DNA from: Stieleria maiorica
GTDB lineage: Bacteria > Planctomycetota > Planctomycetia > Pirellulales > Pirellulaceae
Direction: 5' to 3'
Assembly (NCBI RefSeq): GCF_008035925.1
Contig: NZ_CP036264.1
Span: 1,077,774 to 1,141,773, forward strand
Length of the DNA stretch: 64,000 bases
A program made the position numbers and the translations under genes. This document shows, piece after piece, positions 1 through 63,553 of the stretch (its first letter is position 1; each line of letters begins with the position of its first letter). The notes beneath the pieces were generated by a model. That model made no database searches, had not been told where the DNA came from, and saw only the letters and a program-made list of their open reading frames with translations.

Positions 1-786
1 GTCGTTCAAGCTGAGCTTGGTCAGGGAGGAACTGCCCAGGTCATAGGTCCAGCCGTGGAGCGTTTGACGGCAGGCGATCACGCCGACAAATTCCGCGTTT
101 GCTCCCAGATGCTTGATCGCCGGCGCGTACTCGGCAAGCGCGGAGCAGGGCAGGGCGGTGCCTTCGGTCGAGAGCACCAATTCGGTCGCCGGCACTTCGC
201 GGTCGCGATCGCGGAACAATTCGACATGCAGACGTGGGCCGACATGACGTGTGGCATGGCCGGCCCGAGCGATCATCCGAACGCTGTCGCCCTCCGGCGT
301 GATCTCGGCCGAGACGTCGACCGGCGGCATCGATCCGGTGCGGCTGAGGATGCTGACATCGGTCGCCAGGATCGAGATCGGAACCACCGTCTGGGCCGGA
401 CGGCTGATCAAACGGTCGTGCAGCATCGTCCAGGCGTGACCCAGCCCGGCCGACTGGAATTCCGGCTGGTGCAAGATGATCGCCGCCCGCTCACGCTCGA
501 CAAGGTAATCGATCAGACGCACCGTCACGACGTGCTGGCGGGAATCCGGATCGCTGACCCGGACGTTCTCCAGGATGTACTTACCCGGCGCGACACGCTC
601 GCAACGCCCGATTTCAAACACCAACCCCGTCTGCAGATTCAGATGGTGGGTCAGCTCGGCCAGCTTGTTGGCCTGGTACCACGGCGTCCAGGTGACCAGG
701 ATCGAAAGAAAGACGATCGACGTCGGGACCGCGCAGCAGAAAACGAACAACAATCGAGCGACGGCTCGCTGGGTCCGTTCATGCAT
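1..786 (-). CDS. membrane-anchored protein of unknown function (3' end outside window)
   Basis: An uninterrupted minus-strand frame of 262 codons runs from an ATG at 786 to the window edge, so the C-terminus is missing. Residues about 8-32 form one hydrophobic segment after a short basic N-terminus (MHERTQRAVAR), which looks like a signal anchor. The rest is soluble, probably extracytoplasmic. I recognise no catalytic motif. It lies 231 bases downstream of the M50 protease-like gene on the same strand. That gap holds a heptamer tandem repeat, so the two may be co-transcribed with GspE. The frame was found by translating the reverse complement. Function unknown. Confidence 0.7.
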   Translation of the reverse strand, partial: MHERTQRAVARLLFVFCCAVPTSIVFLSILVTWTPWYQANKLAELTHHLNLQTGLVFEIGRCERVAPGKYILENVRVSDPDSRQHVVTVRLIDYLVERERAAIILHQPEFQSAGLGHAWTMLHDRLISRPAQTVVPISILATDVSILSRTGSMPPVDVSAEITPEGDSVRMIARAGHATRHVGPRLHVELFRDRDREVPATELVLSTEGTALPCSALAEYAPAIKHLGANAEFVGVIACRQTLHGWTYDLGSSSLTKLSLND

Positions 787-909
787 CCATGCAATCCCCT
801 TCGGTGGCGACAGTTCACCCGAGATTCTAGGTGGCCGGCGGGGCAGAAGGGTAGATCGTTTCGGCCGTGGAAGGTGATTCGAGGAAAGAGAGTTTTGCTA
901 GCAAATCGG

Positions 910-963
910 GGGAGTTGGGAGTTGGGAGTTGGGAGTTGGGAGTTGGGAGTTGGGAGTTGGGAG
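910..963 (-). repeat. heptanucleotide tandem repeat (CCCAACT)n
   Basis: About 7.7 head-to-tail copies of GGGAGTT on the plus strand, which read CCCAACT on the coding strand of the flanking minus-strand genes. The array sits between the stop at 1018 and the next start at 786. Just after that stop the coding strand reads GGTTTCAGGTTTG, a degenerate relative of the TTTCAAG heptamers seen after other stops in the window. Confidence 0.9.
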
Positions 964-1017
964 AAAAATGGGGGGCAGGAAAATGCAGGCAGGAGGCCGT
1001 TCGACAAACCTGAAACC

Positions 1018-3804: not shown

Positions 3805-3810
3805 GATGCA

Positions 3811-5885: not shown

Positions 5886-7613
5886 ATGACTCGACACGAC
5901 GTCAATCGTTCTGATTTCTCGACGCTTGACGCAGGAAAACTGCTGCCGGGATGCTCGCTGCCGATTCTGGTTGAGGGCGACCCAGGGGAGGGCAACCGGC
6001 CGCTACATGCCTTTCGCCGATTCGAGCCGTTGCCGATCGATGGTCTCCAACCGGGAGCTTTGCGGTCGCTGGCTGATTCCTGGATCGACGTCGCACGATC
6101 GCTCAAGGCGATGCATGATGCCGGGCGATGCTATGGCCGCATCACGTCCGCGTCGTTTCATAATCGCGGGACCCAGACCGAACCGACCGCAACGCTGTGG
6201 ATCGATCCGGCACTTGCCGCTCAAGCCGATGCGGTCCACGGCGGTGACCCCGAATCGATCTACTGGACGACCGCGCGTCTGCAGTCGGGAAAGCCTGCGC
6301 AACCGGCCGATGATTGGTACGCGTTGGGCATCGTGCTGGCCGAAATCGCACTTTCGTCTGCGTCGGTGCACAAGATCTGGGAACTGAGTCGACAGGATGG
6401 GAAGTTCGTCGAAAGTTTGATCAAGAATCTAAAACGCTCTCGCAGCGATCGACGGTTGCGGAAACTCGCCCTCGCGCTGATCCGCGAGGGGGCAACGGGC
6501 AGCGTCGATGACGCCACGATCCGCGAATTGACCACGCGCCCCGCGACCGGCAGCCGGACGGCGACGTCGCTGGTCATCGCCGCATTGGGGATCGCAGTGG
6601 TCGCGATGGGATGGTCGTTGTACCGCAACATCGGCCAATTGCGCGAGCGTGATCAACAATTCGCGGTGCTGGAAAACCGGGTGGACGAATTGCAACGGCG
6701 AGCCGAGTCCATCGAGAACACAATGCCCGCCTCGATCGCGACGCCGGTGGCCGTCGCGGTCCCCGAACCGGCATCGGTGCGTCCCAACGACCGTGACCGC
6801 TGGACCGATGCGATTGCCGGGCGGGCGTTGGAACAAGCGATCGCCACGTCTGCTGATTTTCAGCCCAGCGAGTGGCACGAGCGATTGGCCAAGCTGCAGC
6901 AATTGCCAGGGCAAATGCAATGGCGGATCGCCGACGAACCACTCCGCCGATTGATCCAGCGCTCCGTCGACGCACCTTGGGATGATTCGGTCATCCAGCA
7001 GGCTCAGGACCGCATCGTGGCACTCGGCCAGGCCCATTCCCGCTGGACGCAGTGGGCCCGCAGCGATCGCAGCATCGATGAAATCCGCACGCAGCATGAC
7101 CTGATGCCGTCGGGGTTGGTGAAGGAGTTCTTGGGGCAATGGTTGGCCGAGGCGCTGGAGGTCCGCTCCTTTGATCTTCGTACACGAGTGATCAAGGCCG
7201 CCCAGGAGAACAAGTTCGTGGCACACGTCATCGGTTTCGAAACGCCGTCCGATTCGGAAACGGTTGACTGGGTGTGGGCGTCGGCCGAGGGGACCGATGA
7301 ATCGATCGGCCTGCAGATCGACGGCTATCACGCCGGCGAGACGCTGACGTATTGGGTGCAACAAGACAGCTCGATCCCCTATTGGGACAAAACCGTGATC
7401 GAGCACACGTTCGATAGCCCCCTGTTGATTTGGCAACTGGCCAAAGGGTTGAAGCTGGAGAACAGCGAAAGCGGCTACGCCGTGCTGCTTTCGACCAACG
7501 TCCGCTTCGGGCCTCCGGTGAAACTGGAATCTTCGTCGACGGAGGTGGTCGTCGATGCGGGGGAACGGAAAGTCGTGGACCCGATGGATGATTTGCCGTT
7601 CGGGCTGGATTGA
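5886..7613 (+). CDS. pseudokinase-like membrane protein with coiled coil
   Basis: 575 residues. Residues about 55-155 resemble a protein-kinase C-lobe: GRCYGRITSASF (80-91) sits where HRDLKPxN would be, and DDWYALGIVLAEI (142-154) matches the DxWSLGVxLxEL region. The glycine-rich loop, the VAIK lysine and the DFG motif are not apparent, so catalysis is unlikely. One transmembrane helix spans about 227-246, followed by a coiled coil (about 250-278) and a roughly 300-residue C-terminal region without recognised motifs. It could be a scaffold linking a cytoplasmic pseudokinase to an extracytoplasmic domain. The stop TGA runs directly into the 13-14-mer tandem repeat. Family call is moderate; function is inferred. 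Confidence 0.6.
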   Translation: MTRHDVNRSDFSTLDAGKLLPGCSLPILVEGDPGEGNRPLHAFRRFEPLPIDGLQPGALRSLADSWIDVARSLKAMHDAGRCYGRITSASFHNRGTQTEPTATLWIDPALAAQADAVHGGDPESIYWTTARLQSGKPAQPADDWYALGIVLAEIALSSASVHKIWELSRQDGKFVESLIKNLKRSRSDRRLRKLALALIREGATGSVDDATIRELTTRPATGSRTATSLVIAALGIAVVAMGWSLYRNIGQLRERDQQFAVLENRVDELQRRAESIENTMPASIATPVAVAVPEPASVRPNDRDRWTDAIAGRALEQAIATSADFQPSEWHERLAKLQQLPGQMQWRIADEPLRRLIQRSVDAPWDDSVIQQAQDRIVALGQAHSRWTQWARSDRSIDEIRTQHDLMPSGLVKEFLGQWLAEALEVRSFDLRTRVIKAAQENKFVAHVIGFETPSDSETVDWVWASAEGTDESIGLQIDGYHAGETLTYWVQQDSSIPYWDKTVIEHTFDSPLLIWQLAKGLKLENSESGYAVLLSTNVRFGPPVKLESSSTEVVVDAGERKVVDPMDDLPFGLD

Positions 7614-9252: not shown

Positions 9253-12200
9253 ATGGAGGGGGAACTCGGCGAGACTTGTCCGTGTTGCGCTGCCGTTGTC
9301 GGGGCAGGGCAGGGGAGTTGCTCGCGGTGCGGGTTTCCGTTGACGGCTTATCGAACACTGGACGTCGCGCCCTGTTTGAATCTGGATGGCGGGACAGTCG
9401 CGCGGCCGGCGATTGAATTTCAAAATGCCGGCGCGGTGATTCGGTTGGCCGAGGGTGGAGGAGTGATCGTCGGCCGTGATGACCAGCCGTTTGATGGGTT
9501 CGACGTGCAGACATTTCGTCATCGCGAACTGCAGCAGCGGCACGTCGCCTTCTTGCCGGGCCAGTCCGATTCGATATGGCTGGTCGATCTGTGTCCGGAG
9601 CATCGTGGCGTGTTCGTCGACGGTCGGTCGATGTCGCTGTCGCAGCTGGTGGATGGTGCGGTCGTTCAAATCGGTCCGCTGGGGTGGAAGTTCAACCAGA
9701 GCAAAGGCATCTTGACGCCGGTCACACCGATCGCCGGCTTCGATCTCGCCGTGGACGCGGAAGTGGACGGGCGTTTGACCCCGACCAAGCTGCACCTATC
9801 CCGCGGTGAAATGACGGCGCTGGTCGGCCCCAGCGGTTGTGGGAAGTCGACGTTGTTGGAAACCATCCGCGACGGCAGCGGGTTGGCCGGGGACGTCGAC
9901 ACGGCCGGACGGGTGTTTTTTGTGCCGCAGCGTGATTTAGTACACCATGACTTGAGACTCCGCGATGCTTTGCTCGCGATCGCGGGGCTGTACGGACGCG
10001 AACCGTTGCCCTTTGAAATTGATGCGGCGCTCGATTCAGTCGGGTTGCCCGCGTCGGCCAAGGACAAGTTTCCGGGAGAGCTGAGCGGCGGGCAACTGCG
10101 TCGGTTCCGGATCGCCGGGGCGCTGTTGTCCGGTGCCGGTGTGATCGTGTTGGATGAGCCCGATAGCGGGTTGGATCACGAGACGGCCGGCGAAGTCATC
10201 TTGCTATTGCGCTCGTTGGCCATCCGCGGTGCAACCATCGTCGCGGTGACTCATCACCGCCATGTGCTCGATTCGTTTGATCGCGTGATCACGATGCGTC
10301 CAACGCCTGATGGGGGCGCGGTCGAGGGCACCGGCGACGCGGCGCAGACTTCGGCTGGGCAGTCGGGATTGCCAGACGATCAGGATGATGTGCCGTCGGC
10401 GATGTTTCGTTTTTGCAATCGGATGGCGATTCTGTTTCGTCGCGAACGGCAAAAACTGACCTCACCGAAGTTGTCGCGGTTGTCACTGGGGCCGCTCCGT
10501 GTTCCGCATTTGATGATCGGAATGCTGTTGGTGCCGGTGTTGTTTGCCGTTGCGATTGCGATCAGCGTGCCGACGGACCCGGATCGTGATGTCGCCGATG
10601 GGTTGTACGGCCAGATTGGCCCGATCAATCGGTTGGGATTCTTGGCGGTCGTGTCGGTGATCTGGATGTCGGCCAGCGGAAGCCATCTTTCGATCACGCG
10701 GGATCGTGAACTGTATGATTACGAACGGTCCTATGGTGTGACGTGGGGTCAGTTGCTGTCGGCCAAGTCGGTCGTGCTCGTGATCGCCGGCATGTTACAG
10801 ACGCTGGTGTTTGCGGGTTTGTTGTATGTGATTCGTGATCGCTGGTTGGCTCGCTCGTTTTTTGTCGACGAGCGGGCGATGCAGTTACCCGGTGTCGTGC
10901 TCTGTTTGTTGGGCGTGTCGATCGCCGCGACGATGTTGGGGTTGTTGATTTCGGCGATGGCGGGGCGCGGACCGTTGTTGGCCGCGGCGATCTTGCCGGT
11001 CGTCATGATGTTTCAAATTCTGTTCAGCGCGCCGTTCGCGATCTCGGACCCCGACGGCTACGAGCCCCTGGCGGACTATGAATCGCTGACGGTGTTTTCG
11101 CAGCAGTCGGACGCCGACGGAGAGCAAGCAGATGAAGACGAGTGGGAGGATGATTGGGTGGAAGAACAACGACCGCTGTGGGCCACGTCATTGTTTTCTT
11201 ATGCGACCCTGTCCCGTTACGGGGACAAATGGTTGCGTTCGTTTGCGGTGACGACCGAGCCGCCCGAGCAAGCGCGCACGGTCCAGTGGAGGTCTGCCGG
11301 TGCGCTGGCGGTCATGTCCGGGTTCTGTTTTGTGGCGTCTTGGTTCGTGTTGTGGATTCAGTCGACTCGGTTGGGAATCCGTCGCGTTCGAGCCGCCGGG
11401 GTGATCGCGGCTGCCGTCATCCTGTGCGGCCCGTTGACACCGACGCTCGCCCAGTCGCCGCTCGGACAGACGCCGGCCGAAGTGTCGACCGAAGCATCGG
11501 TCGAACCGGCGTCCAGCACGATCCGGCTGTCGCTGGTCGAGGGACGTTACGACGAAAACAAACTGCGGCGTGCGATGGGGGGCCGGGCCGATGACACGCC
11601 GCGGTGGCGCGAGTTCGGCAATCAAGATCGACTCGGGTTAGTCGCGCTGGAACTGGTCGGAAAGATCGAGTTCAGCCTTAGCGACGATGAGTTGGTGATC
11701 CGCTTGAAGCAGACGCCGAAGTGGGACTTGATGAAGCAACTGGCGCCGCCGCGATTGATCGGGCGGGAGGACGTCGGCGATGTCGATGACGTAGTGGTGT
11801 TCGTGCACGGATTGGAGGGCGGCGAGTCGACGTTTGCCGGGGCCACCGAGGCGTTGGCCGAGCGGGGAATCGCGTCGATGCGATTTGATTACCCCAACGA
11901 CGGGCCGCCGGCGGAGATCGGTCGCCGTCTGGCCGAGCAGCTCGCCGAATTCGGTCGCGAGCATCCCGACGCAAGGGTTCATCTGGTCGCGCATTCGCTG
12001 GGCGGTCTGGTGTCGACCTGGGCGGTGACCGAGAGTGACTTTCCGGCCCGGACGGTCCCGCACGTGGTGACGCTGGGTACCCCCTTTCGCGGTTCCGCGT
12101 TGGCATCGTTTCACGACGAGCTGGAGTTGTTTGACGTCCTGGTGCGGTTGGCCACGGGGACACGCGGGGCGCTCAACACGGTCGCCGACGGGCGGGGGGA

Positions 12201-12600: not shown

Positions 12601-12734
12601 GGGCTTTCTCCATTTACAAAACGGCCCTGCCCCTCGTACACTGCCGGGCTTTCCCGTGCCCGCTATCGGTGCGCCTGTTGGGTGCTTCGACTGGTGGGGT
12701 TTTGTCTATTGACTCGTGATTCCCTTTTTTCAGC

Positions 12735-22766: not shown

Positions 22767-22768
22767 GT

Positions 22769-23467: not shown

Positions 23468-24021
23468 CGTCGAATCCTTTCGGTTGGGGAAACAGCGGTC
23501 ACTTATTCAAGCAGCAGGTCGAAAGCATCCAGCTTCCCCGCTGTAAGGGTTTTCGGGCCGCGCCGCCGGCACGGATGGGGAAAACATCGATTCCCCTCGC
23601 GACGCGAATGACCCGACCCGATTGACCAATCGCTACGGTCTGCCAAAGGGTCGTGCACGGCAAATTGAGCAGACAAGCACGGAGCGATTCAGCGTTAAAG
23701 CACCAAAGACATCAGCCGAATCGCGCAAGCGTTCGGGCTCCGGCTTTCGATCACAAACTGAGCCGTAGGCGCTAGCCTCGGGCCTTGCAGGTCTCGAAGG
23801 GCAATCCAAGGCCCGCGGCTAGCGCCGTCGGCTCATAAAGTAGGTGGCATTGGGCTCGCGCCAAACGGCTGATTCCACGGGGAATCGGAGGAATTCAATC
23901 CGTGGACCGGCGGTGCGGCTGATTTCCGGGGGGAGGGCGGTCTGTGGGTTTGCCCCCAGACGGTTTGGGTTACACTAGCTCGATTCGAATTTCACGCCCC
24001 GAGCATCGTCGTCTGAGGTCT
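23468..24021. repeat. intergenic gap with nested hairpin elements
   Basis: No gene is seen. An ATCAGCCG-family element spans 23711-23873. Between its arms, at 23759-23835, sits a different hairpin: TGAGCCGTAGGCGCTAGCCT pairs with its near-complement ending GCTAGCGCCGTCGGCTCA, through about 29 bases with four mismatches. The 3' part of the gap may hold the moxR promoter. Confidence 0.8.
23949..23976 (+). promoter_or_regulatory. possible moxR operon promoter
   Basis: TTTGCC and TACACT separated by 16 bases, ending 45 bases before the moxR ATG. It fits a sigma-70 type promoter loosely; this rests on spacing and partial consensus only. Confidence 0.3.
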
Positions 24022-25071: not shown

Positions 25072-25142
25072 GTTTCAAGTTTCAAGTTTTTCGTACAGCC
25101 ACCTCCCACCTCCCAACTCACCCCTTCCCCTCTCTCACCCAC
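25072..25142 (+). repeat. TTTCAAG then CCCACCT heptamers between moxR stop and next start
   Basis: Two TTTCAAG units follow the stop immediately. CCCACCT/CCCAACT units (about 25101-25118) and a C/T-rich stretch then lead into the next ATG. Order and orientation match those at 30208-30320. Confidence 0.8.
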
Positions 25143-26054: not shown

Positions 26055-28057
26055 GTTTTCTGAGACTCGGTGCCCTGTGGGCGCTTCCATTGGTATTGAT
26101 CCCGATCGTGATTCATTTGATTCACCGTCGCCGGCACCCCAGTGCGCCCTGGGCGGCGATGATGTTTCTGCGCCGTGCCAGCCAATCGCGTCGCGGTCCG
26201 GCAAAGCTGAGACGATGGTTGATCCTGGCGGTTCGAACGCTTGTGGTCACCGCCGTCATCGTTGCACTCTCGCGCCCCCTTTCCAGCAACCGTTTCGGCA
26301 TCGCGGCCAGTCGAGTCGTATCCGGGGCACCGTCGATCGTGGTTTTGGATCGATCCCCCAGCATGCAGCGACGGGGGCCGTCCGGATTGACTCACCAACA
26401 GGCCGCGCTGCGTCGTCTGGCCGAGACCCTGCGTACGCTTGGGACGCAACATGTCGTACTGATCGACAGCGTGAGCCTGACTCCGGTCCAGCTGGCGGAC
26501 GTCAACGCGTTGACGGATCCTTCCGTGACAAGCGGTGCAGCCTCCGCCGCCGACATTGCCCAGATGTTGCATGTCGCGATGCAGACCATCCGCGACAACG
26601 ATCATGCGGTCGCCGACGTTTGGGTCTGCAGCGATCGTCAGGGGAGTGATTGGCGCGTCGACGCCCCGTTATGGACTCAAATCGCCGCAGCGGCTGAAGG
26701 GATGGGGGCCGGGGTTCGGTTTCACTTGCTGGACGTCGCGAATGATCAACGCGTCAATTCGTCCGTCACGGTGACCCGCCAGCGTTTAGTCGACCACGAC
26801 CAAGGGCAGGAGCTGATGCTTTCGATCGTCGTCCAGCGCGACGACGAGGCTGCGTTTCAGATTCCTGTGCGGGTCACGGTCGGCGGAGTGACCTCCCGCT
26901 ATGACGTGCAGGTCGATGGTGGTCGGGGCGAGCTGGCCGAGGTGCGTGTGCCATTGCCACAAAACGCGGGGGCGGTGTTCGGTCAGGTTTCGATTCCGGC
27001 GGACGTGAACGTCGCCGACGACGATTGGTTTTTCGTCGCCAGGGCGGATCAGGATCGTCCGATCGGCCTGATCACCGAGTCACCGTGTCTGGCCTTGGAA
27101 GTCACCGCCGACGTGTTGGGCAAGATCGTCGCAGGCGGCAGCGGTGTTCCCAACGGGGCAGGGCAGGGGAGTGGGCGGACGGGCGACGAAGATTCGTTGC
27201 GTGATGCGGCATGCTGGCTGTGGCAGGGTCAGCTGCCGACCGGCGACGATGCAAGTGCCGTCCAGCGGTTTCTTCGCAGCGGCGGCAGCGTCGTTTTCTT
27301 TCCGCCGATGGATGTCGATCGCGAGAATGAATTCCAGTCGATCCGCTGGGGCCAGTGGTCGCGTGATGACGTTCAACAGGCGACGTTCGATCAATGGGAA
27401 TTGCCGATCGCCGCGTCGTGTTCCATCGACGGCCAGCTGGTTCGCGTGGCGACGATCGGCCAAGACCAGCTGTGGATCGGAAAGATCCGGGTCGGTGACG
27501 GAGCGGCCTGGTTTTGTGGCGCCGACGTGATCGACGGTGACAGCTTGTTCGTCAAAGACGGATTGGTCTTGTATGGACTGGTGTCCGAAGCACTCGGCGC
27601 GAGCACCTTGCATGTCGGCGGTGATCAAGGCTTGGTCGCCGGGATCGGTGACCAGCGATTGAAACAGCAATCGGGACAGGATCGAGCACCCTCCGACGCG
27701 ATCGTCGAACCACTGCTCGTCGAACCACTGCTCGTCCGAAGCGACGCGGCCGATGCCGTTCCCTTCGGGCATGCCGCGGGAGTGTTTTCCCTGCGGGTTT
27801 CCGTCGAGAGTCCTGCCGACGTGGTGGCGATCAACCGTCCGGCCGCGGAATCGGACGGGCAACCGATCACCGAGTCACAGCTGCAATCGCTACTGGGGGA
27901 CGTCCGTTGGAATCGCGTCAGCCTGGACGACCGACAAGATGAATCCGGCGGCGGTCTGGTGCAAGAAATCTGGGGCGCGATCTGGGTGATGATGATCCTG
28001 GGGATGTTGTGCGAAGCCTGGTTGACGTTGCCGACGCGGACGCGGGGGCAATCGTGA
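26051..28057 (+). CDS. BatA-like membrane protein
   Basis: 668 residues. The N-terminus matches the BatA/aerotolerance N-terminal region: a membrane segment (4-24), then HLIHRRRHPSAPWAAMMFLRRA, then a second segment (about 57-76). A vWA-like core begins IVVLDRSPSMQRRG (D-R-S-P-S metal-site pattern). The long middle part is extracytoplasmic in character, and a C-terminal membrane segment lies near 637-660. It overlaps both neighbours by one to four bases. In other bacteria such proteins form membrane complexes activated by MoxR. Physiological role in planctomycetes unknown. Confidence 0.85.
   Translation: MSFLRLGALWALPLVLIPIVIHLIHRRRHPSAPWAAMMFLRRASQSRRGPAKLRRWLILAVRTLVVTAVIVALSRPLSSNRFGIAASRVVSGAPSIVVLDRSPSMQRRGPSGLTHQQAALRRLAETLRTLGTQHVVLIDSVSLTPVQLADVNALTDPSVTSGAASAADIAQMLHVAMQTIRDNDHAVADVWVCSDRQGSDWRVDAPLWTQIAAAAEGMGAGVRFHLLDVANDQRVNSSVTVTRQRLVDHDQGQELMLSIVVQRDDEAAFQIPVRVTVGGVTSRYDVQVDGGRGELAEVRVPLPQNAGAVFGQVSIPADVNVADDDWFFVARADQDRPIGLITESPCLALEVTADVLGKIVAGGSGVPNGAGQGSGRTGDEDSLRDAACWLWQGQLPTGDDASAVQRFLRSGGSVVFFPPMDVDRENEFQSIRWGQWSRDDVQQATFDQWELPIAASCSIDGQLVRVATIGQDQLWIGKIRVGDGAAWFCGADVIDGDSLFVKDGLVLYGLVSEALGASTLHVGGDQGLVAGIGDQRLKQQSGQDRAPSDAIVEPLLVEPLLVRSDAADAVPFGHAAGVFSLRVSVESPADVVAINRPAAESDGQPITESQLQSLLGDVRWNRVSLDDRQDESGGGLVQEIWGAIWVMMILGMLCEAWLTLPTRTRGQS
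27156..27171 (+). repeat. G-rich dispersed 16-mer (two overlapping GGGCAGGG)
   Basis: Exact copy of GGGCAGGGCAGGGGAG inside the BatA-like gene; same reading phase as the copy at 9302 (G-A-G-Q-G-S). Confidence 0.8.
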
Positions 28058-33300: not shown

Positions 33301-33540
33301 GGCGGCGGCGGTGGCGGAGGAAGCGCCGGGGGAGGGCAGGGCGGTGAGACCGATCAGGCGGCGATCGCGTTGCTGGGCGAAGGGCTGAATCAACTCGCCC
33401 TTACGCGCCAGTCGGCAACCGCACTGTCGGTCGGACGCGACCGTCGCGAAGTCCCCGAACGCTGGCGGTCAGGATTGGATCTGTATTTCGACCGCTTGGA
33501 ACAGCGCCGGAGTGCTGCGAATGGGGAGGCGGGACGATGA
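30328..33540 (+). CDS. large membrane protein of the MoxR operon, unknown function
   Basis: 1070 residues. Three membrane segments near the N-terminus (about 37-54, 62-82, 154-178) are followed by a long extracytoplasmic-type region. This has beta-rich sequence to about 500, then predominantly charged helical, probably coiled-coil sequence (about 500-950) with acidic runs. A glycine-rich patch lies near 995-1010. The large helical part suggests a structural or scaffold role. The stop overlaps an ATG at 33537 (ATGA). I recognise no enzyme motif; similar very large proteins commonly accompany MoxR/BatA genes in planctomycetes. Confidence 0.8.
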
Positions 33541-33800: not shown

Positions 33801-34859
33801 TTGCGGACCTTGCGGTGTCTGGTCTGGGCAGCGATGCTGATGTTGGCGAGTTCGGCAGATGCCCAGACACCCGCGGAGACTGCGGTGGAATCATCGTCGG
33901 CGAACATCGGCGAGACGGTCTCGCGGGACGTTCATGAGATCTATGCCAAGGGGTTGGGCTTCCTGGCGCAGACCCAGAATGAACGGGGCACCTGGCCGGC
34001 GGGGGAGGGTACCGGACCGGGAACGACGGGGTTGGCCGTGTTGGCGTTCCTGGCGTCCGGTGAAGACCCCAACTTTGGTCCGCATCGCGATGTGATCCGG
34101 AAAGGGTTGCGGCACATCATCGCCGGCCAGTCGGCGGTGACCGGATACATTTCGCCGAGCATGTATCACCACGGATTCGGCATGTTGGCCCTGTGCGAGG
34201 CCTATGGGGTGGTGGATGATTCGGACCTGTATTCGGCCGACGAATCGGAAGCCCGGCGCAGTCTGGCCGAGGCGACCGAGTTGGCGGTTCGCGCGGCATT
34301 GACGGCACAAAAGAACAATCGCAGGGGCGGATGGCGGTACGCACCCAACGCCAGCGACGCCGACACGTCCGTCTCTGGCGCCGTCGTGATGGGATTGCTG
34401 GCCGCCCGCAATGCGGGGATCGAGGTGCCGGATGAATCGATCGACAAAGCCATCGACTACTTCGTCAGCATGACGGCCGAGGACGGCACGGTCGGCTACG
34501 CCAGCGTCAGCGAAGGCGGCGGCGAGTCGGTCGCCCGCAGCAGCATCGTCAACCTGGTGCTCGCCATCGCCAGACGCAAGGACTTGCCGGCCTATCCATC
34601 GACACTGCGGTACATCGTCGGCAATCGTGATGCCCAGCCGACCTGGCCCGAATACGCGCGCTACTATCAAGCCCAGGCCTACTTTCAATCCGACGTCGCG
34701 GTTTGGAAGCAGTGGAACGATCGCTTGGTGCAGCAACTGAAACGCGACCAAAAGTCCGACGGAAGTTTTGATGGAGATCTCGGAGTGACCAACAGCACCT
34801 CGATGTCCTTGCTGGCGATCGCATTGAACTACCGATTTCTACCGATCTATGAACGATAA
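33801..34859 (+). CDS. secreted prenyltransferase/squalene-cyclase-fold repeat protein
   Basis: 352 residues if translation starts at TTG 33801. That start gives a good signal peptide (MRTLRCLVWAAMLMLASSADAQ). The mature part has terpene-cyclase/prenyltransferase-type alpha-toroid repeats (GTTGLAVLAFLASGEDPNFG, YHHGFGMLALCEAYG, SGAVVMGLLAARNAG). Members of this fold in planctomycete MoxR operons are usually not assigned a reaction. The frame is open back to an ATG at 33537 that overlaps the previous stop, but those 88 extra codons are hairpin-repeat sequence and would bury the signal peptide. The last 11 bases overlap an ATG at 34849. Confidence 0.82.
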   Translation: MRTLRCLVWAAMLMLASSADAQTPAETAVESSSANIGETVSRDVHEIYAKGLGFLAQTQNERGTWPAGEGTGPGTTGLAVLAFLASGEDPNFGPHRDVIRKGLRHIIAGQSAVTGYISPSMYHHGFGMLALCEAYGVVDDSDLYSADESEARRSLAEATELAVRAALTAQKNNRRGGWRYAPNASDADTSVSGAVVMGLLAARNAGIEVPDESIDKAIDYFVSMTAEDGTVGYASVSEGGGESVARSSIVNLVLAIARRKDLPAYPSTLRYIVGNRDAQPTWPEYARYYQAQAYFQSDVAVWKQWNDRLVQQLKRDQKSDGSFDGDLGVTNSTSMSLLAIALNYRFLPIYER

Positions 34860-49622: not shown

Positions 49623-50579
49623 TTAGTGGGTAACCAGCAACTGCTGGGCGAATCGGATGTCGTTGCGAAGCTGATCGGTCAGTGCGTCGATGGAGTCAAA
49701 TCGGACGACGCCGCGAACGCGGTCGATCAATTCGACATCGAGCGTTCGGTCGTACAGGTCGCCGTCGAAACCGATCAGGTGGACTTCGACTTTCGTCGCG
49801 TCGCCTGACTGGAATGTCGGGCTTTCGCCGATGTGGATCGCCGCGGGGTGGCGGGTGTCGTCGACCGAGGCGTATCCGGCATAGACGCCGGCAGCGGGAA
49901 TGACCACGTCGATCTGTTCCAGGTTGGCGGTGGGAAAACCGAGCGTGCGTCCGCGGCGGTCGCCGTGTCCGACCCGTCCGCGGATCAGATGCGGTGTGGC
50001 CATCATCGCAGCCGCGCCGCGGACGTCTCCTTCGGCCAGCAAGTCTCGGATTCGCGTGCTGCTGATCATCGCTCCGTCGGCAGATTCCATTTCCGCGACC
50101 CGGAATTGGATGCCGTGTTCGCCGCACCACCGGCGCAGCACATCCACGTCGCCTTGGCGGTCTTTTCCGAAGCAAAAGTTCTCGCCTTCGACCACCCCGC
50201 GGCAGTCCAACGTGTCACAGACCAGGGCGTCGAAGAATGCCTTGGCCGACAGGTTCAACAGGGCAGGGGAGGTCTGGCAAACGAGCAGGAAATCGATGCC
50301 CAGTTCGGTCATCCGTCGCGCCCGCAGGTCGATGGAGGTCAATCGTTTGGGCGCCAATTCGGGGCGCAGGATCGCAATCGGGTGAGGGTCGAACAGGCAG
50401 GCGATGGCGGGGCCGCCCAGCCGATCGGCCAGTTGACGCGTTTGCCCGAGCAAGCGGGCGTGGCCCAGATGGACGCCGTCGAAGTTTCCGATGCTCAGCA
50501 CCCCCCGTCGGACCGCCCGCGGGAGCGCAGCATCGACCGCCGAGTCGGTGATATCGGGAAGCGAGACGATTTCGGTCAC
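49623..50579 (-). CDS. ribF: bifunctional riboflavin kinase / FAD synthetase
   Basis: 318 residues. RibF phosphorylates riboflavin to FMN and adenylates FMN to FAD. The N-terminal nucleotidyltransferase domain has SIGNFDGVHLGHARLL and FDPHP, plus the ISSTRIRDLL motif. The C-terminal flavokinase domain has GRVGHGDRRGRTLGFPTANL and the EVHLIGFDGDLYDR region. Length is typical (about 310). A GGGCAGGG site lies within the gene on the opposite strand. The gene upstream (in transcription direction) is not on this strand, so a promoter should lie in 50580-50787. Confidence 0.95.
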   Translation of the reverse strand: MTEIVSLPDITDSAVDAALPRAVRRGVLSIGNFDGVHLGHARLLGQTRQLADRLGGPAIACLFDPHPIAILRPELAPKRLTSIDLRARRMTELGIDFLLVCQTSPALLNLSAKAFFDALVCDTLDCRGVVEGENFCFGKDRQGDVDVLRRWCGEHGIQFRVAEMESADGAMISSTRIRDLLAEGDVRGAAAMMATPHLIRGRVGHGDRRGRTLGFPTANLEQIDVVIPAAGVYAGYASVDDTRHPAAIHIGESPTFQSGDATKVEVHLIGFDGDLYDRTLDVELIDRVRGVVRFDSIDALTDQLRNDIRFAQQLLVTH

Positions 50580-50657
50580 GAGATTCGAGAGGGCAGGGGA
50601 GGGTGGTTCGCGGAAACAGGGTCAGGAGCACATGACAGTGGCGAATCGCCGTGCAAA

Positions 50658-54725: not shown

Positions 54726-55604
54726 TTAGAGGGAATGGATCACGTCGGGCAGGGATTGCAGCAGTTCCGCGCAGGTCATGCCGGGCTGAGAGTGCTTGGC
54801 GGCCGCGGCGTCACCGGCCAAGCCGTGAACAAACACGCCCAATCGTGCGGCGTCCCAAGGGGAAAGACCTTGTCCCAGCAGCGACGTGATGATGCCGGTC
54901 AAGACGTCCCCGCTGCCGGCGGTGGCCATCCCCGGGTTCCCGCTGTTGTTGACATGCTCAATGACGTTGCGGTTGTCTGCGGCGCTTTCCAACCCGACCA
55001 CAACCGTCGGGCCGCCTTTGACGACGATCGTCAGGCCGTGTTTCTCGACCAAGGTCTTCGCGGCGGCGATCTGTCCCGGTCGGTCGCCGGCCGACACGCC
55101 GGTCAGCCGTGCCAGTTCACCAGGATGCGGTGTCAGGACCAACGTGGACTGGTCGCGGGGCAGGGCAGGGCGGTCGAGCAATTGGTGCTCGGACAACAGG
55201 TTGATAGCGTCGGCGTCCATCAGTCGCATGCAGTCGTTCTGTTGCAACAGTGCTTCGACGATCCGCAACGAGCCGGCGCCGGTCCGCATGCCCGGCCCAC
55301 AGCCGACGGCATTGAGCGATTGCGTCGAAGGCAGCGTCGCAGAGGATGCGAATTGACCGTCGTCGGTATCCGGCAAGGGGAGGGTCATGATCCCGGGATG
55401 AAAGCTCGCAACCGTTTCCAGGCAACGGTCCGGAACGGCGGCCGAAACCAGTCCGGAACCCGTTTTCAATGCGGCCATGGATGACAGCGCGATCGATCCG
55501 GCCATGCCGCGAGATCCGCCGATCAACAACACGCTTCCGAAGTCGCCTTTGTGGGCATCCGACGCGCGGGTGGGGAAGGGCAGGGGAGGTGTGGGGTGTG
55601 CCAT
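54726..55604 (-). CDS. nnrD: ADP-dependent NAD(P)H-hydrate dehydratase
   Basis: 292 residues. NnrD repairs hydrated NADH and NADPH. The carbohydrate-kinase-like fold shows GDFGSVLLIGGSRGMAG, AVGCGPGM, LTPHPGELARLTG and the catalytic ATAGSGDVLTGIIT. It lacks the N-terminal epimerase (NnrE) domain that is fused in many bacteria. The ATG at 55604 shares a base with the larB stop (TAATG), so the pair is translationally coupled. The frame is open to 55700, but that lies inside larB. Confidence 0.93.
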   Translation of the reverse strand: MAHPTPPLPFPTRASDAHKGDFGSVLLIGGSRGMAGSIALSSMAALKTGSGLVSAAVPDRCLETVASFHPGIMTLPLPDTDDGQFASSATLPSTQSLNAVGCGPGMRTGAGSLRIVEALLQQNDCMRLMDADAINLLSEHQLLDRPALPRDQSTLVLTPHPGELARLTGVSAGDRPGQIAAAKTLVEKHGLTIVVKGGPTVVVGLESAADNRNVIEHVNNSGNPGMATAGSGDVLTGIITSLLGQGLSPWDAARLGVFVHGLAGDAAAAKHSQPGMTCAELLQSLPDVIHSL

Positions 55605-56461
55605 TACGTTGATCGTTCCAGTTGTCGCACGACCAACCCGGCCAGGTAGGCGGCTTTGAAACCGGCGTCGATGTTGACGACCGCGACATTGGATGCGCAC
55701 GAGCTGAGCATCCCCAGCATCGCGGTCAGCCCGCCGAGCGTCGCGCCATAACCGACGCTGGTCGGGACGGCGAACACGGGGACGCTCAAGTGCCCGCCGA
55801 CGGCGGCCGGCAGGGCGCCCTCCATCCCGGCGATCACGACCACGGCGGCGGCCTGACGCAGGTGCGGAACCGCGGCCAGCAACCGCGCCGGTCCGGCCAC
55901 GCCGATGTCGTCGAATTGGCGAAAGCGGATTCCCATCCAGTGCAGCGTTTCAATCGCTTCTTCGGCCACCGGCGCATCGGTGCTGCCGGCGGTGACGACG
56001 GCGACGTGTTTGATCAAACCGGCATCGGGAGACACTGCATCTTGGGTTTTCGGAATCGGGCTCGGCGGCGCCGCGTCGGCGACGCCGGCGGTCAGCGTGC
56101 GGGCGACCGGGTTGTAGCGCGCCGTGGGGATCTGCGTCTGAACCTGCTCGGCGACCTCCGGGGCGACCCGGGTGGCCAGCGACGGTTGCCCGGCGGCCTG
56201 CTGGGACTGGATGATCGCCGCGATCATTTGGGCCGGTTTCCCATCGCCGTAGATGACTTCGGGGAACCCGCAGCGGCGCTGGCGGTCCAGGTCCAGCGTG
56301 ACCCGCTCGGTCGCGGCGATGTCGGGGGAGGGTGGTGCATCGGCGGGGCCGTCCGCCAACGCCGCCAGGGCGTCGGCGACGCTCCGCCGTCCGGTCGCGA
56401 CCTCGGTCAGCAGGCGGGCGAGCGGTTCGTGGTTTGATTTGGGGGGCGGATGGGGAGGCAA
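55604..56461 (-). CDS. larB: pyridinium-3,5-biscarboxylic acid mononucleotide synthase (LarB)
   Basis: 285 residues. LarB carboxylates nicotinic acid adenine dinucleotide in the first step of the nickel-pincer cofactor of lactate racemase. The C-terminal two thirds are AIR carboxylase-like (PurE fold): HVAVVTAGSTDAPVAEEA, VVVIAGMEGALPAAVGG, VPVFAVPTSVGYG. The N-terminal block has LDLDRQRRCGFPEVIYGDGK, a LarB feature that separates it from PurE. Start is TTG at 56461. No larC, larE or larA is in the window, so the pathway must be completed elsewhere if functional. Confidence 0.9.
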   Translation of the reverse strand: MPPHPPPKSNHEPLARLLTEVATGRRSVADALAALADGPADAPPSPDIAATERVTLDLDRQRRCGFPEVIYGDGKPAQMIAAIIQSQQAAGQPSLATRVAPEVAEQVQTQIPTARYNPVARTLTAGVADAAPPSPIPKTQDAVSPDAGLIKHVAVVTAGSTDAPVAEEAIETLHWMGIRFRQFDDIGVAGPARLLAAVPHLRQAAAVVVIAGMEGALPAAVGGHLSVPVFAVPTSVGYGATLGGLTAMLGMLSSCASNVAVVNIDAGFKAAYLAGLVVRQLERST

Positions 56462-56499: not shown

Positions 56500-56515
56500 G
56501 GGCAGGGCAGGGGAG
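56500..56515 (+). repeat. G-rich dispersed 16-mer (two overlapping GGGCAGGG)
   Basis: Exact copy of GGGCAGGGCAGGGGAG in the divergent gap between larB and argG. Confidence 0.8.
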
Positions 56516-58551: not shown

Positions 58552-60426
58552 ATGCCGTTGCGGACGATTGCTTGGATGGGAGTGTTGGTTTGCCTGTTTG
58601 GTGTCGGCTTGTCGGGCACCGCAGTGGATGCGGGCACCTTTGAAGCCAACACGCGTCGTGAGATCTCGATGACGAAGCGCAAGATCCGCGCCGCGCAGTT
58701 TCTTTCTCGCGCGACCTTCGGACCGAACCTGCAGCAGATCGAGGCGCTTGCCGAGCGGATGGGCCAGATCGGGACGCGGCGTGCCTGTGAGGAATGGATC
58801 GATCAACAGATGGCGCTGCCGGCCGCGTACCACCATCCCTTGGCGTTGGACATGATCGCCCGTGACGGGCTCACTTCGACCCAGGGTGACGTTTGGATTC
58901 AACGGTATCGCTACCATGCGTGGTGGCACTGTGCGTTGGCCGGCGAAGATCAGCTTCGACAGCGAGTGGCATGGGCGCTGATTCAGATTCTTGTGACCAG
59001 CCAAGACGGTGCGGGGTTCAATGATCAGAACCCCGGACACTACAGCGGGGAAGGGCGGTGGCTTGGGCCGACACATTATTATGACTTGATGGTCCGTCAT
59101 GCGTTCGGCAACTATCGCGAGTTGCTCGAGGACGTGACCTATCACCCGATCATGGGTGTCTACTTAAGTCATATGCGGAACCGCAAAACCGACCAGGCCA
59201 GCAATCGGTTTCCCGACGAGAACTACGCCCGCGAGATCATGCAGTTGTTCACGATCGGGTTGTACGAACTGCATCAGGACGGTCGGCTGAAGACCGATGA
59301 GTCGGGCAACTTGATCCCGACCTATGACAACGAAACGATCAAGGAGTTTGCCAAGGTCTTCACGGGGTTGGCGTTCAAGCCTCATCCCAATGCGACGGGG
59401 ACGGGCCAGTTTTGGTGGGGCAACGAATTCGAAGCACCGATGCAGATGTTCGATTTTGAACATGAGCCCGGATTGAAAACCTTGCTCGGCGGAGAAGTGA
59501 TCGGCAGTGAGACGAACGTCGATGGAGAAGCGGATATCACCGCGGCGCTGGACAATCTGATCGCCCATGACAATGTCGCTCCCTTCATCTCGCGCCGCCT
59601 GATTCAGCGGTTGGTCAAAAGCAACCCCTCGCGCGGTTACATTCGTCGCGTTGCCCGCAAGTTCAATGACAACGGGCAAGGTGTCAAAGGCGATCTGGCC
59701 GCTGTCGTCAAAGCCGTGTTGTTGGACCCCGAGGCTTGGAGTGGACAGCGATTGCTCGGCCGCCGCCGACCGAATCGGGTGGACGTGATTCCTCGGGGAA
59801 CGGATTACTCGACGTTGACCGAGCCGGTGATTCGATACACGCGTTTGCTTCGTGGAGTCAACGCGACGAGCAACCATCACAGCGGACGGGCGATGTTGAT
59901 GTCCCAGAATTACAGCTGGACACAAGAGCCCTACTTGTCCCCGACGGTGTTCAATTTTTACCTGCCCGACTACCAGCCGCCGGGTGATTTGCTCGGCTAT
60001 ACGCCGTCTCGCCGGATCCCGAACGGATTCCTGGCATCGCCGGAGTTCCAGATCAAGACGCCGGTCACGTCCAATCGCTTGGCCGGTCGATACATTTGGG
60101 ACATCTCCAATCAGATGTCGCAACAACGCTGGTCCAACGGCACCAGCGGGTTCTCTCACAACAGCGACATGGTCTTTCATTTGGAAGACGAAGAAACGCT
60201 GTGCACCGAGGACGAGGACATGCATGAGCTGATGGATCGATTCGACTTGCTGTTTTGCTACGGATCGATGCCGCAGGATTACAAGGACCGGGTGGTCGAG
60301 GTCACGACGGCGGAAACGCAGTGGATGAAAAACAACGCTGAGTATCGTCCCCGGCTGGAAGAGTTTCGGGTCAACGCGGCGCTGATGGCGACCGTGTTGT
60401 CTCCGTTCGCCGCCATTACCGAATAG
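58552..60426 (+). CDS. secreted DUF1800 family protein
   Basis: 624 residues. The signal peptide covers about residues 1-27. DUF1800 features include AAQFLSRATFGPNLQQIEAL, a WWHCAL-type region, VAWALIQILVTS, the MGVYLSHMRNRK block and NYAREIMQLFTIGLYEL, plus VFTGLAF. The biochemical function of DUF1800 is not established; the family is usually encoded directly upstream of a DUF1501 protein, as here (80-base gap). ATG 58552 follows GGTGAGAGCG; a GTG three codons upstream is also possible. Confidence 0.92.
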   Translation: MPLRTIAWMGVLVCLFGVGLSGTAVDAGTFEANTRREISMTKRKIRAAQFLSRATFGPNLQQIEALAERMGQIGTRRACEEWIDQQMALPAAYHHPLALDMIARDGLTSTQGDVWIQRYRYHAWWHCALAGEDQLRQRVAWALIQILVTSQDGAGFNDQNPGHYSGEGRWLGPTHYYDLMVRHAFGNYRELLEDVTYHPIMGVYLSHMRNRKTDQASNRFPDENYAREIMQLFTIGLYELHQDGRLKTDESGNLIPTYDNETIKEFAKVFTGLAFKPHPNATGTGQFWWGNEFEAPMQMFDFEHEPGLKTLLGGEVIGSETNVDGEADITAALDNLIAHDNVAPFISRRLIQRLVKSNPSRGYIRRVARKFNDNGQGVKGDLAAVVKAVLLDPEAWSGQRLLGRRRPNRVDVIPRGTDYSTLTEPVIRYTRLLRGVNATSNHHSGRAMLMSQNYSWTQEPYLSPTVFNFYLPDYQPPGDLLGYTPSRRIPNGFLASPEFQIKTPVTSNRLAGRYIWDISNQMSQQRWSNGTSGFSHNSDMVFHLEDEETLCTEDEDMHELMDRFDLLFCYGSMPQDYKDRVVEVTTAETQWMKNNAEYRPRLEEFRVNAALMATVLSPFAAITE

Positions 60427-61946: not shown

Positions 61947-61972
61947 CGCTCCACGACGCGACCGCAGTTCAG

Positions 61973-62038: not shown

Positions 62039-62095
62039 CCGACGTGGTGTTGTCCAGCGAGGCCGTGGCGATCCGGGAATCTCTCCGACAGGGGT

Positions 62096-63001
62096 TCAGT
62101 CCAGCGTGTCATCCGGCAATGGCTCGTTGCCGTTGGGCGTGACCAGCGCGGCGAAGGTCCTGGGCGGGAGGTCGTTGGGCAGGAAGTGGCCGCGGCCGTC
62201 GACGGTGGCCATGGTGGCGCCGCTGGACATTCTGCCCCCCGGTTCAATCCCGACGGTTCCGTTGATCACGCCTTGCATCGCCGTGTAGTCCAGGTCGACC
62301 GGTTCGGCCCAGCCGCCGATCGCGCGGTTGATCGGTGGCGCGCCCGCGATCACCAGAATGGTCTGCGACGCATTGTCTTGGATCTTGTCGGGCGCGAGCG
62401 GGCCGGTCGGAGGAAAGAGCGTTCCCGGCCCGGTGATCAAATAGTATCCCGATTGGGTTCCGGCGCGATTGGTATCGTTGGGGTGAATGTACACGGACGG
62501 CATCGCGTAACTCGCTTGCAGGTTCAGTTCGTGATCCCAAGGCTTGCTGAGGTCGAACTGGTCGTACAGATCCTGTTCGCCAAGGTAGGGCAAGATCAGG
62601 ACACGCCAGGAATGCATCGGCAGGCCGGCGCTGTCGCGAAGGGTTGCCGGCGGATAGGTCCCGTAATCTGCCGCGTACGCGTTCAGTGCCGTGGCGATGC
62701 TTTCCAAGTTTTTGATCGACGCGTTCTGTAGACGGATTTCGGCCAGCCGTGACACGCTGGCACCGCCGAACCGGATGGCGGCAAACGCGATGCAGACCAG
62801 CATGGTCAGCACTACGCCGGCGGCAATCATTACCCCCAGCGGTCGTTTGCGTTCGCCCAGGTTCTTGGTCGGCGTTGAGGCGGCGAAGTCGGGCAGATGG
62901 ATGGGGGCGCCGCACGAAAAGCATTCGCCGGACTTTCCACTGTATTGGTCTTCAACCTGAGTTTGCGCGTGGCAATGCGGGCAGGTAAACAGGTAGGGCA
63001 T
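62096..63001 (-). CDS. zinc-ribbon, single-pass pseudopilin-like protein (DUF1559-related)
   Basis: 301 residues. A zinc ribbon (C7-P-H-C10, C27-F-S-C30) precedes a single membrane segment (about 55-76). After it, [24 protein letters not shown] has the pseudopilin-like helix seen in planctomycete DUF1559 proteins, followed by [19 protein letters not shown] and a C-terminal block [20 protein letters not shown]. The canonical prepilin cleavage motif (GFTLVE) is absent. It is likely surface or periplasmic. Function unknown. Confidence 0.8.
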
Positions 63002-63115
63002 GAATGGTCAAACGCCTTGCGAGACGTGGAGTGCATGGTGATGATTGGCAGCGTGTCCGGGAAGCGAACGTTCGAAGCTCAGGGGCACGAGCGATTCATT
63101 TTAGAGGACAAGACA

Positions 63116-63553
63116 TTGAAAGTGGTGTTGCAGCGGGTCAGCGAGGCAAGCGTTTCGGTCGCCGGGGAGGTCGTGGGCGAAATCGGGACCGGTTTTTTGG
63201 CTTTGGTCGGGATCGGCCACGGAGACGATGAAACGGTCGTCCGCTGGATGGCGGAGAAGACGGCGGTGCTGCGTGTCTTTGAAGACGAAGCGGGCAAGAT
63301 GAATCGATCCGTGATCGACGTCGGCGGCAGCGTCTTGGCCGTCAGCCAATTCACGCTGTACGGAGATTGCCGCAAGGGACGTCGGCCTGCGTTCACGGAC
63401 GCCGCCCCGCCGGAGGTCGCTGAGCGGTTGTACGAGTTGTATGTCGAGGAATTGAAAGGGCAGGGGATCGGCGTCGAAACCGGCGTCTTCGCAGCCGACA
63501 TGAAGGTGGCGTTGGTCAACGACGGCCCGGTGACGATGCTGTTGCAGCGGTGA
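63116..63553 (+). CDS. dtd: D-aminoacyl-tRNA deacylase
   Basis: 145 residues, the same length as the Escherichia coli enzyme. DTD hydrolyses D-aminoacyl-tRNAs (and glycyl-tRNA(Ala)) to protect translation. The family motifs SQFTLY (77-82) and NDGPVT (135-140), which form the active site between two subunits, are intact, as is the Gly-Met-Asn segment DEAGKMNRS. The start is TTG at 63116, supported by AGAGGA about eight bases upstream and by homology; upstream in-frame sequence has no family match. The stop TGA is the first base triplet of an octamer tandem array. Confidence 0.95.

What the first reader, a model, noticed from the sequence alone, without database searches (positions are those of the whole stretch)
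148..63465. GGGNAGGG octamers lie almost entirely on the plus strand: candidate KOPS
Counting by eye, GGGCAGGG occurs 18 times on the plus strand (148; 9302, 9307; 27156, 27161; 29958, 29963; 33334; 35588, 35593; 50261; 50591; 55158, 55163; 55578; 56500, 56505; 63458) and once on the minus strand (12625). With other GGGNAGGG matches (5985, 23930, 33329, 34002, 50596, 55377, 55573, 56325, 59048) the ratio is about 27 to 2. Several plus-strand copies fall inside minus-strand genes (ribF, nnrD, larB), so coding bias does not explain it. GGGNAGGG is the published FtsK-orienting (KOPS) consensus of Escherichia coli. If it works the same way here, the plus strand is leading and dif lies to the right. 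This matters because most planctomycetes lack FtsZ yet must still resolve chromosomes.
Basis: partly seen in the sequence, partly recalled or inferred. Interest (0 to 1): 0.72.

Follow-up and report, generated by a model that had tools for sequence, protein, structure and literature searches.

The report
Signposts guiding DNA pump to dif
A short DNA word repeated on one strand here is very probably the signpost that tells the chromosome pump FtsK which way to go to the chromosome's separation point, in a group of bacteria that divide without the usual division protein and for which I found no description of either the signpost or that point.

Summary
In detail: GGGCAGGG 19+/1- in the window, GGGNAGGG 28+/2-. 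It is not a chromosome-wide bias (198+/152-). The word is piled up around one point and reverses strand there; that point carries a single dif-like XerCD site, AACGTCCGATAA-TCACTC-TTATGTTGTAT in this genus. In 68 planctomycete-type loci fetched by the dif pattern alone, GGGCAGGG converges on dif 135:15 (48 loci for, 0 against, 20 tied or empty), first of 13,092 octamers. Sites are conserved beyond composition-matched octamers. GC skew mostly does not flip at dif, so composition is not the cause. FtsK gamma, XerC and XerD are encoded. KOPS is the best reading, in a terminus-focused, often overlapping form. FtsK binding is untested.

The window is the right-hand half of this zone. In eight of eight relatives compared it adjoins dif; in this assembly it lies 2.2 Mb away, inverted. 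A 100-N run and a duplicated linker at the break suggest misassembly rather than a real inversion. With the relatives' join, dif lies about 2.1 kb beyond the window's right-end arrays.

The parts
148..155 (+). KOPS-like octamer GGGCAGGG
   Evidence: exact match
5985..5992 (+). GGGGAGGG
9302..9314 (+). overlapping pair GGGCAGGGCAGGG
12625..12632 (-). the one GGGCAGGG of opposite polarity
23930..23937 (+). GGGGAGGG
25122..25129 (-). GGGAAGGG of opposite polarity
27156..27168 (+). overlapping pair GGGCAGGGCAGGG
29958..29970 (+). overlapping pair GGGCAGGGCAGGG
33329..33341 (+). overlapping GGGGAGGG and GGGCAGGG
34002..34009 (+). GGGGAGGG
35588..35600 (+). overlapping pair GGGCAGGGCAGGG
50261..50268 (+). 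GGGCAGGG inside ribF, a minus-strand gene
50591..50603 (+). overlapping GGGCAGGG and GGGGAGGG just upstream of the ribF reading frame
54747..54754 (+).
55158..55170 (+). overlapping pair GGGCAGGGCAGGG inside nnrD (minus strand)
55377..55384 (+). GGGGAGGG inside nnrD (minus strand)
55573..55585 (+). overlapping GGGAAGGG and GGGCAGGG in the first part of the nnrD reading frame (minus strand)
56325..56332 (+). GGGGAGGG inside larB (minus strand)
56500..56512 (+). overlapping pair GGGCAGGGCAGGG between larB and the argininosuccinate synthase domain
59048..59055 (+). GGGAAGGG
63458..63465 (+). GGGCAGGG nearest to dif within the window in the relatives' arrangement, near the 3' end of the D-Tyr-tRNA deacylase gene
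63550..63740 (+). 8-bp tandem array (GTGGAGGA)n at the break
   Evidence: TRF; same kind of array at this place in relative G013
63741..63755 (+). linker CCCGACGCTCAATTG, also present, inverted, at the other broken end (L013:8998-9012, record 8,808,997)
63756..63869 (+). 7-bp tandem array (CTCCCAA)n; the break in synteny with the eight relatives lies in this stretch of arrays

Best explanation
GGGCAGGG in this genome is a KOPS: a polar loading and orienting signal for the FtsK translocase. Shown by computation: the word is concentrated around dif, points at dif from both sides, is often doubled by overlap (GGGCAGGGCAGGG), is conserved between species, and the genome encodes FtsK with a gamma (KOPS-reading) domain, XerC and XerD. 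Inferred: FtsK gamma binds GGGCAGGG, the motor loads facing dif and pumps DNA until it meets XerCD at dif, so dimers are resolved and the terminus is cleared at division. The window is the half of the zone that lies to the right of dif; in the relatives' arrangement its motifs point back at dif. That it appears 2.2 Mb from dif and reversed in this record is most likely a mis-oriented 2.23-Mb segment in the assembly, less likely a real inversion.
For: The dif-like site (23-bp query, 0 mismatches) is found once in G000 and once in each of its 13 same-genus relatives. In all 13 switch regions fetched, over 6 genera, it lies between the last plus and the first minus 13-mer, in G056 with 8 of 27 mismatches. 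On dif-bearing contigs of 11 same-genus genomes 87 of 90 GGGCAGGGCAGGG converge on dif read linearly; the 3 exceptions, all in G011, fit if its arms meet opposite dif. Among octamers with at least 15 copies, rank 1 of 6232 in 8 same-genus genomes (118:4), 1 of 169 in 4 other genera (69:2), and 1 of 13,092 in the set chosen by dif alone (68 loci, 135:15; 48 loci for, 0 against, 20 tied or empty; sign test 7e-15). In G012 density on the right falls from 5.5 to 0.5 per 10 kb by 120 kb. Conservation above composition-matched octamers in 4 of 4 relatives. GC skew negative on both sides of dif in G012, G013 and the re-joined own map, so left of dif the G-rich word lies on the G-poor strand. FtsK gamma over the Pfam cut-off in 55 of 60 genomes, own included; XerC and XerD over their NCBIfam cut-offs. 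The same script on E. coli K-12 gives GGGNAGGG 13:0 within about 40 kb of its dif.
Against: No binding or translocation data. Of the residues that E. coli and V. cholerae work names as KOPS contacts (N1296, R1300, E1303, also E1306), N is G and E1303 is D in 27 of 27 gamma domains read, E1306 is A in 22 of 27, and R1300 is kept in 26 of 27 but is K in this genome. The genome-wide polarity is weak (198:152), unlike the even density described for E. coli. Single octamers lie on the wrong side of dif in 7 of the 13 switch regions. Twenty of 68 dif-selected loci show no bias, 16 of them for lack of any copy; three of three titled Phycisphaerae have none. In G003 GC skew does change sign at dif. 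In the deposited order the window's motifs do not point at dif by the short way. An immunogold study of Gemmata obscuriglobus found FtsK over the nucleoid and not at a septum (PMC3954628, passages), so its cell-level role may differ from E. coli.
Confidence: 0.85

Rival explanations
1. The motif is a terminus-directed polar signal read by something other than FtsK (another architecture-imparting octamer, a fork barrier, a recombination or SMC-unloading signal), and dif sits at its junction because both mark the terminus.
For: Octamers that rise towards the terminus with strand bias are a broader class (AIMS), of which KOPS are a part (PMC5993296, passages). The gamma contacts differ from E. 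coli at N1296 and E1303 and mostly at E1306.
Against: The octamer is the one tested as KOPS in E. coli and V. cholerae; the switch is at dif itself, where FtsK must stop; FtsK gamma, XerC and XerD are all present.
Confidence: 0.1
2. The skew is a by-product of strand composition or of coding strand.
For: GC skew is positive in all sixteen 4-kb bins of the window. In G003 the skew changes sign at dif.
Against: GC skew is negative on both sides of dif in G012, G013, all but one bin of G001 and the re-joined own map, while the motif reverses, so on one side the motif lies on the G-poor strand. Composition-matched octamers that do not overlap the motif follow weakly or not at all. Copies lie inside minus-strand genes.
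Confidence: 0.03
3. Concerning position only: the 2.2-Mb displacement of the window from dif is a real inversion in this strain, made by recombination between inverted tandem arrays, leaving dif outside the convergence of its signposts.
For: The arrays are inverted relative to each other (132 bp, 97%), and gene order is plastic in the genus: the probe from 8.81 Mb lies at 10.37 Mb in G001 and 6.27 Mb in G012. The segment is centred within about 30 kb of dnaA, the start of the record. G012 motifs are kept less often in the displaced half (17/29) than on the dif side (13/15), a hint of decay (p 0.09).
Against: A run of exactly 100 N abuts the break (the only N run longer than one base in 909 kb of own sequence read; one such run was also met in G012, at no known break), and the same linker between the 8-bp and 7-bp arrays occurs at both broken ends, as expected if reads over one true junction ended up on both sides. 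In the closest relative motifs are kept equally (G013 22/26 and 18/23; G001 11/16 and 13/16). Inversions starting at the polarity junction impair division in E. coli (PMC2585057, passages). The second junction that a single inversion would predict was not found in relatives, which counts against either version of a simple flip.
Confidence: 0.2
4. The word is a G-quadruplex or a low-complexity CAGGG expansion with no segregation role.
For: Overlapping copies read GGGGCAGGGCAGGGG and could in principle form G-rich structures (inference, not folded).
Against: Does not predict reversal at dif nor conservation of the exact octamer; most convergent octamers of the dif-selected loci are not in doubled form (135 octamers, 21 doubled places).
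Confidence: 0.02

Closest known systems
KOPS of Escherichia coli / Vibrio cholerae (GGGNAGGG, FtsK-orienting polar sequences)
   Same: Same octamer, convergent on dif, FtsK gamma and XerCD present; in E. coli K-12 the same script gives GGGNAGGG 13:0 within about 40 kb of dif.
   Different: Strong preference for C at the fourth base; concentrated within about 100-150 kb of dif instead of evenly along both arms; natural overlapping pairs, of which none occurs within about 40 kb of E. coli dif and which in E. coli work were built as test substrates; gamma recognition helix IGYGRAARLID (IGYGRAAKLID here) instead of IGYNRAARIIE.
dif site of XerCD
   Same: Two arms around a 6-bp centre, one copy per genome in this genus, arm TTATGTT shared with E. 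coli dif (E. coli dif letters recalled, found in K-12).
   Different: Other arm is AACGTCCGATAA; the survey PMC3025954 tried 1 Planctomycetes organism and predicted 0 (passages).
AIMS (architecture-imparting sequences)
   Same: Strand-biased octamer that becomes denser towards the terminus (PMC5993296, passages).
   Different: AIMS are a statistical class, most without an assigned reader; here the octamer is the known FtsK word.

Membership tests
KOPS | Octamer fits GGGNAGGG | tested here: met
KOPS | Polarity converges on, and switches at, dif | tested here: met
   87 of 90 13-mers on dif-bearing contigs; 135:15 octamers in 68 dif-selected loci
KOPS | Polarity not explained by base composition or coding strand | tested here: met
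KOPS | Genome encodes FtsK with the gamma winged-helix domain | tested here: met
   PF09397 84.2 bits against cut-off 30.6; aligns with P. aeruginosa and E. coli FtsK gamma chains
KOPS | Gamma residues known to read KOPS (N1296, R1300, E1303 in E. coli) | tested here: inconclusive
   G / R (K in this genome) / D in 27 gamma domains read, own included; 4 of 31 loci gave no hit to the search expression
KOPS | FtsK binds the octamer and is oriented by it | not testable with these tools
   needs protein
KOPS | Even density and bias along both arms (a trait of the E. coli map, not of the definition) | tested here: not met
   genome-wide 198:152; density peaks at dif; far arms mixed
dif | About 28 bp, two arms around a 6-bp centre, one copy per chromosome | tested here: met
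   one match (23-bp query, up to 3 mismatches allowed) in G000 and in each of 13 same-genus relatives
dif | XerC and XerD encoded | tested here: met
   TIGR02225 368.8 bits (cut-off 329.6) and TIGR02224 351.6 bits (cut-off 335.15)
dif | XerCD recombine at the site | not testable with these tools
   needs protein

The most novel reading that the evidence does not exclude
In these FtsZ-less budding bacteria the FtsK-guided terminus is a dedicated zone of about 200-300 kb, marked by dense, overlapping KOPS around dif and laid down independently of strand asymmetry (GC skew mostly does not turn at dif). FtsK steering would then be defined by the signposts alone rather than by replichores, and the same zone can be used to find dif and to detect mis-oriented segments in planctomycete assemblies.
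Probability: 0.4. Interest if true: 0.75.

Novelty: new variant of a known kind. Interest (0 to 1): 0.63.

Why it matters
ftsK is reported as the only essential gene of the division cluster in the planctomycete Planctopirus limnophila (PMC12283558, passages), and a published survey predicted no dif in its one Planctomycetes genome (PMC3025954, passages). A defined dif and a defined signpost make chromosome-dimer resolution in FtsZ-less budding cells directly testable. Five searches of the held library listed no paper whose title or abstract start describes KOPS or dif in planctomycetes. Passages of four listed papers were read on this point (PMC3025954, PMC12283558, PMC10591338, PMC3954628); the last has no occurrence of KOPS or dif, PMC12283558 likewise. 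Most subscription papers are not in that library.

Tried and rejected
Rejected: chromosome-wide KOPS polarity; a mobile or inserted element (the first thought when the 13-mer proved clustered), dropped when relatives showed convergent clusters; coding or compositional bias. TGGAGGAG, another skewed octamer of the window, is mostly an 8-bp array at the break.

Led nowhere or against: the second junction of a single inversion was not found in relatives; in G013 both probes lie on contig C204 but about 240 kb apart and in the same orientation. The subset GGGCAGGGG in the own record (58+/40-) is 14+/2- in the displaced segment outside the clusters and 2+/12- at 1.18-2.53 Mb, as expected if the segment is flipped, but the full octamer list is weaker there (18+/13- below 1.0 Mb, 9+/17- at 1.14-1.97 Mb), and the far arms are mixed, so I could not place an origin. 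GC skew in 20-kb samples did not give one either. The loss of motifs in the displaced half was tested: G012 leans to loss there (17/29 against 13/15, p 0.09), G013 and G001 do not. The paper on co-evolution of KOPS and FtsK (PMC3384302) is not held. The organism's name was not obtained; I recall that the record size fits Stieleria maiorica, but no call confirms it.

Limits of the counts: the 13 switch regions were chosen because the motif switches there, so and the four-genus part are selected; G056 was left out of those counts because its site matched poorly. In one search octamers of dif itself rank high by construction. 33 of the 123 13-mers lie on contigs without dif and could not be scored. 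'60 genomes' includes the own genome. Overlapping copies are not independent, so the p-values are optimistic. One search's output was cut; one search repeats the comparison in shorter form.
Full report
OBSERVATION. None of 100 dinucleotide shuffles reaches the totals. Six places are overlapping pairs, GGGCAGGGCAGGG.

NOT CHROMOSOME-WIDE. The window is C1:1077774-1141773 of a 9,894,293-base record. Over the whole record GGGCAGGG is 198+/152-, so the window, with 20 of 350 in 0.65% of the sequence, is a local cluster. The 13-mer GGGCAGGGCAGGG occurs 17 times (16+/1-): six in the window, nine at 8.645-8.794 Mb, and two others; the word read backwards occurs 0 times.

CONVERGENCE IN RELATIVES. Of 60 genomes searched, the own included, 54 hold the 13-mer. 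In the single-contig relatives G001, G003 and G012 it forms one main cluster, plus strand on the left and minus on the right, with one far outlier in G001; G011 is looser. k-mers shared by 13 switch regions gave a second sequence, which is dif-like: AACGTCCGATAA-TCACTC-TTATGTTGTAT in this genus, AACGTCCGATAATGTTTCTTATGTTCGGTT as the commonest form among 80 named loci. It occurs once in G000 and once in each of the 13 same-genus relatives. It lies between the last plus and the first minus 13-mer in all 13 switch regions, though in 7 of them single octamers lie on the wrong side. On dif-bearing contigs of 11 same-genus genomes 87 of 90 13-mers converge on it read linearly. The three exceptions are all in G011 and far away; they fit if the arms meet opposite dif. 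Another 33 of the 123 matches lie on contigs without dif.

UNBIASED TEST. In the 68 planctomycete-type loci (504 kb) GGGCAGGG is 135 convergent to 15 divergent; 48 loci lean to convergence, 0 to divergence, 4 are tied and 16 empty; it is first of 13,092 octamers with at least 15 copies. In the 12 loci of other phyla it is 3:3. Among 56 octamers of the same composition the others sum to 868:496, and the four strongest of these overlap the motif. E. coli K-12 run through the same script gives GGGNAGGG 13:0 within about 40 kb of dif and no 13-mer.

SHAPE. In G012 the convergent density on the right of dif is 5.5 per 10 kb in the first 20 kb and 0.5 by 120 kb; the left side is patchier (3.5 falling to 0, with a rise to 2.0 at 160-180 kb). 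Within 100 kb on either side 48 converge and 2 diverge. Binned counts elsewhere: G013 53:2 over 212 kb, G001 34:6 over about 138 kb, G003 16:1 over 100 kb. E. coli is described as even inside and outside its terminal region (PMC3140498, passages).

SELECTION. Own plus-strand sites are unchanged in relatives more often than composition-matched octamers: G012 30/51 against 52/355, G013 40/47 against 168/365, G001 24/39 against 39/197, G003 4/9 against 2/57 (seven octamers with the CA core, the motif among them, were left out of the comparison group; with the other six included it is 78/426, 206/431, 56/247 and 3/67).

NOT COMPOSITION. GC skew is negative on both sides of dif in G012 and G013 and in all but one bin of G001, where that bin is near zero; G003 is +0.029 in the one full bin to the left and negative to the right, which is a change of sign. 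In the own map with the relatives' order it is negative throughout. The left half therefore has its G-rich word on the G-poor strand. Plus-strand copies also lie inside minus-strand ribF and nnrD, and a GGGGAGGG in larB.

MACHINERY. FtsK with a gamma domain (84.2 bits, record 7,375,344), XerD and XerC. The gamma domain is found in 55 of 60 genomes, own included. Its recognition helix reads IGYGRAARLID in most and IGYGRAAKLID here, in place of E. coli IGYNRAARIIE. Of the contacts named for E. coli and V. cholerae (PMC2533119 and PMC2680272, passages), N1296 is G in 27 of 27 read, R1300 is kept in 26 of 27 (K here), E1303 is D in 27 of 27, E1306 is A in 22 of 27; 4 of 31 loci were not read. So the word is kept while part of its reader has changed. 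That is a reason for a binding test, not a disproof.

WHERE THE WINDOW BELONGS. In 8 of 8 same-genus relatives compared, the DNA to one side of dif runs 1.6 to 3.6 kb and then into the window's right end, read backwards from dif. In the record, dif is at 8,806,884 and the window at 1.08-1.14 Mb. The break lies in tandem arrays at window 63,550-63,869. At the other broken end, record 8,809,021-8,809,120, there are exactly 100 N, the only N run longer than one base in 909 kb of own sequence read (a run of 100 N was also met once in G012, at no known break), and the linker CCCGACGCTCAATTG between the two arrays is present at both ends. G013 has the same architecture at one place (8-bp array, a linker of other letters, 7-bp array, dif flank). 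I read this as a mis-oriented 2.23-Mb segment; whether the N run is an assembly gap or an operator mask I cannot tell, though 100 is the customary gap length (recalled). A real inversion through the arrays remains possible, and the second junction that a simple flip predicts was not found in relatives. Joined as in relatives, the own zone is 28:2 left of dif (107 kb) and 27:4 right of it (126 kb), and dif lies about 2.1 kb beyond the linker. As deposited, the 33 kb right of dif hold 1:1.

MECHANISM. Shown: position, polarity, density, conservation, presence of the genes. Inferred: FtsK gamma loads on GGGCAGGG, overlapping copies raise loading or its fidelity, the motor runs to dif and triggers XerCD. 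Cell-level detail may differ from E. coli: in Gemmata obscuriglobus FtsK was seen over the nucleoid and not at a septum (PMC3954628, passages).

NOVELTY. The kind is known (KOPS/dif). The variant is its concentration at the terminus, natural overlap, altered reading helix, and uncoupling from GC skew, in a phylum where a survey failed to predict dif in the one genome tried (PMC3025954, passages) and where ftsK is the essential member of the division cluster in P. limnophila (PMC12283558, passages).

Noticed in passing
L013:9022-9121 (record 8,809,021-8,809,120) and window 63741-63755: Exactly 100 N beside the break and a duplicated array linker: probable mis-orientation of a 2.23-Mb segment in this assembly.
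   Followed up: partly
dif regions of G012, G013, G001 and own genome: GC skew keeps the same sign across dif for at least 40 kb on either side (200 kb to the left in G012), so strand asymmetry does not mark this terminus; G003 is an exception.
   Followed up: partly
L013:15837-16027: A stretch of about 190 bp that recurs many times in each relative (33 to 92 matches to the whole 6-kb probe in six genomes, listing capped): an abundant dispersed repeat of unknown nature.
   Followed up: no
window 54476-54705: 127-bp unit repeated 1.8 times, 99% alike, at the 5' end of the periplasmic-binding-protein reading frame 53341-54726.
   Followed up: no
L002:16291, L015:17210, L016:18557: A repeated sequence GGGCCCGTAGGCTCGCGCCAAACGGCTGAT at three places of the own genome, seen around GGGNAGGG matches.
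   Followed up: no
L069, L080, L086: Three Phycisphaerae loci carry the dif pattern but no GGGCAGGG within the fetched DNA; a review contrasts this class with the budding class Planctomycetia (PMC10591338, passage).
   Followed up: no
G034 contig C6: Two FtsK gamma matches of equal score on one contig.
   Followed up: no
PMC12283558: The paper calls PF17854 the gamma domain and reports it missing in P. limnophila; in Pfam as used here FtsK_gamma is PF09397, present in 55 of 60 genomes.
   Followed up: partly
L065, L070, L072, L074, L079, L091, L092, L100, L121, L127, L128, L134: The planctomycete dif pattern also occurs in 12 of 80 records titled as other phyla (for example Alicyclobacillus), without GGGCAGGG convergence (3:3).
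   Followed up: no
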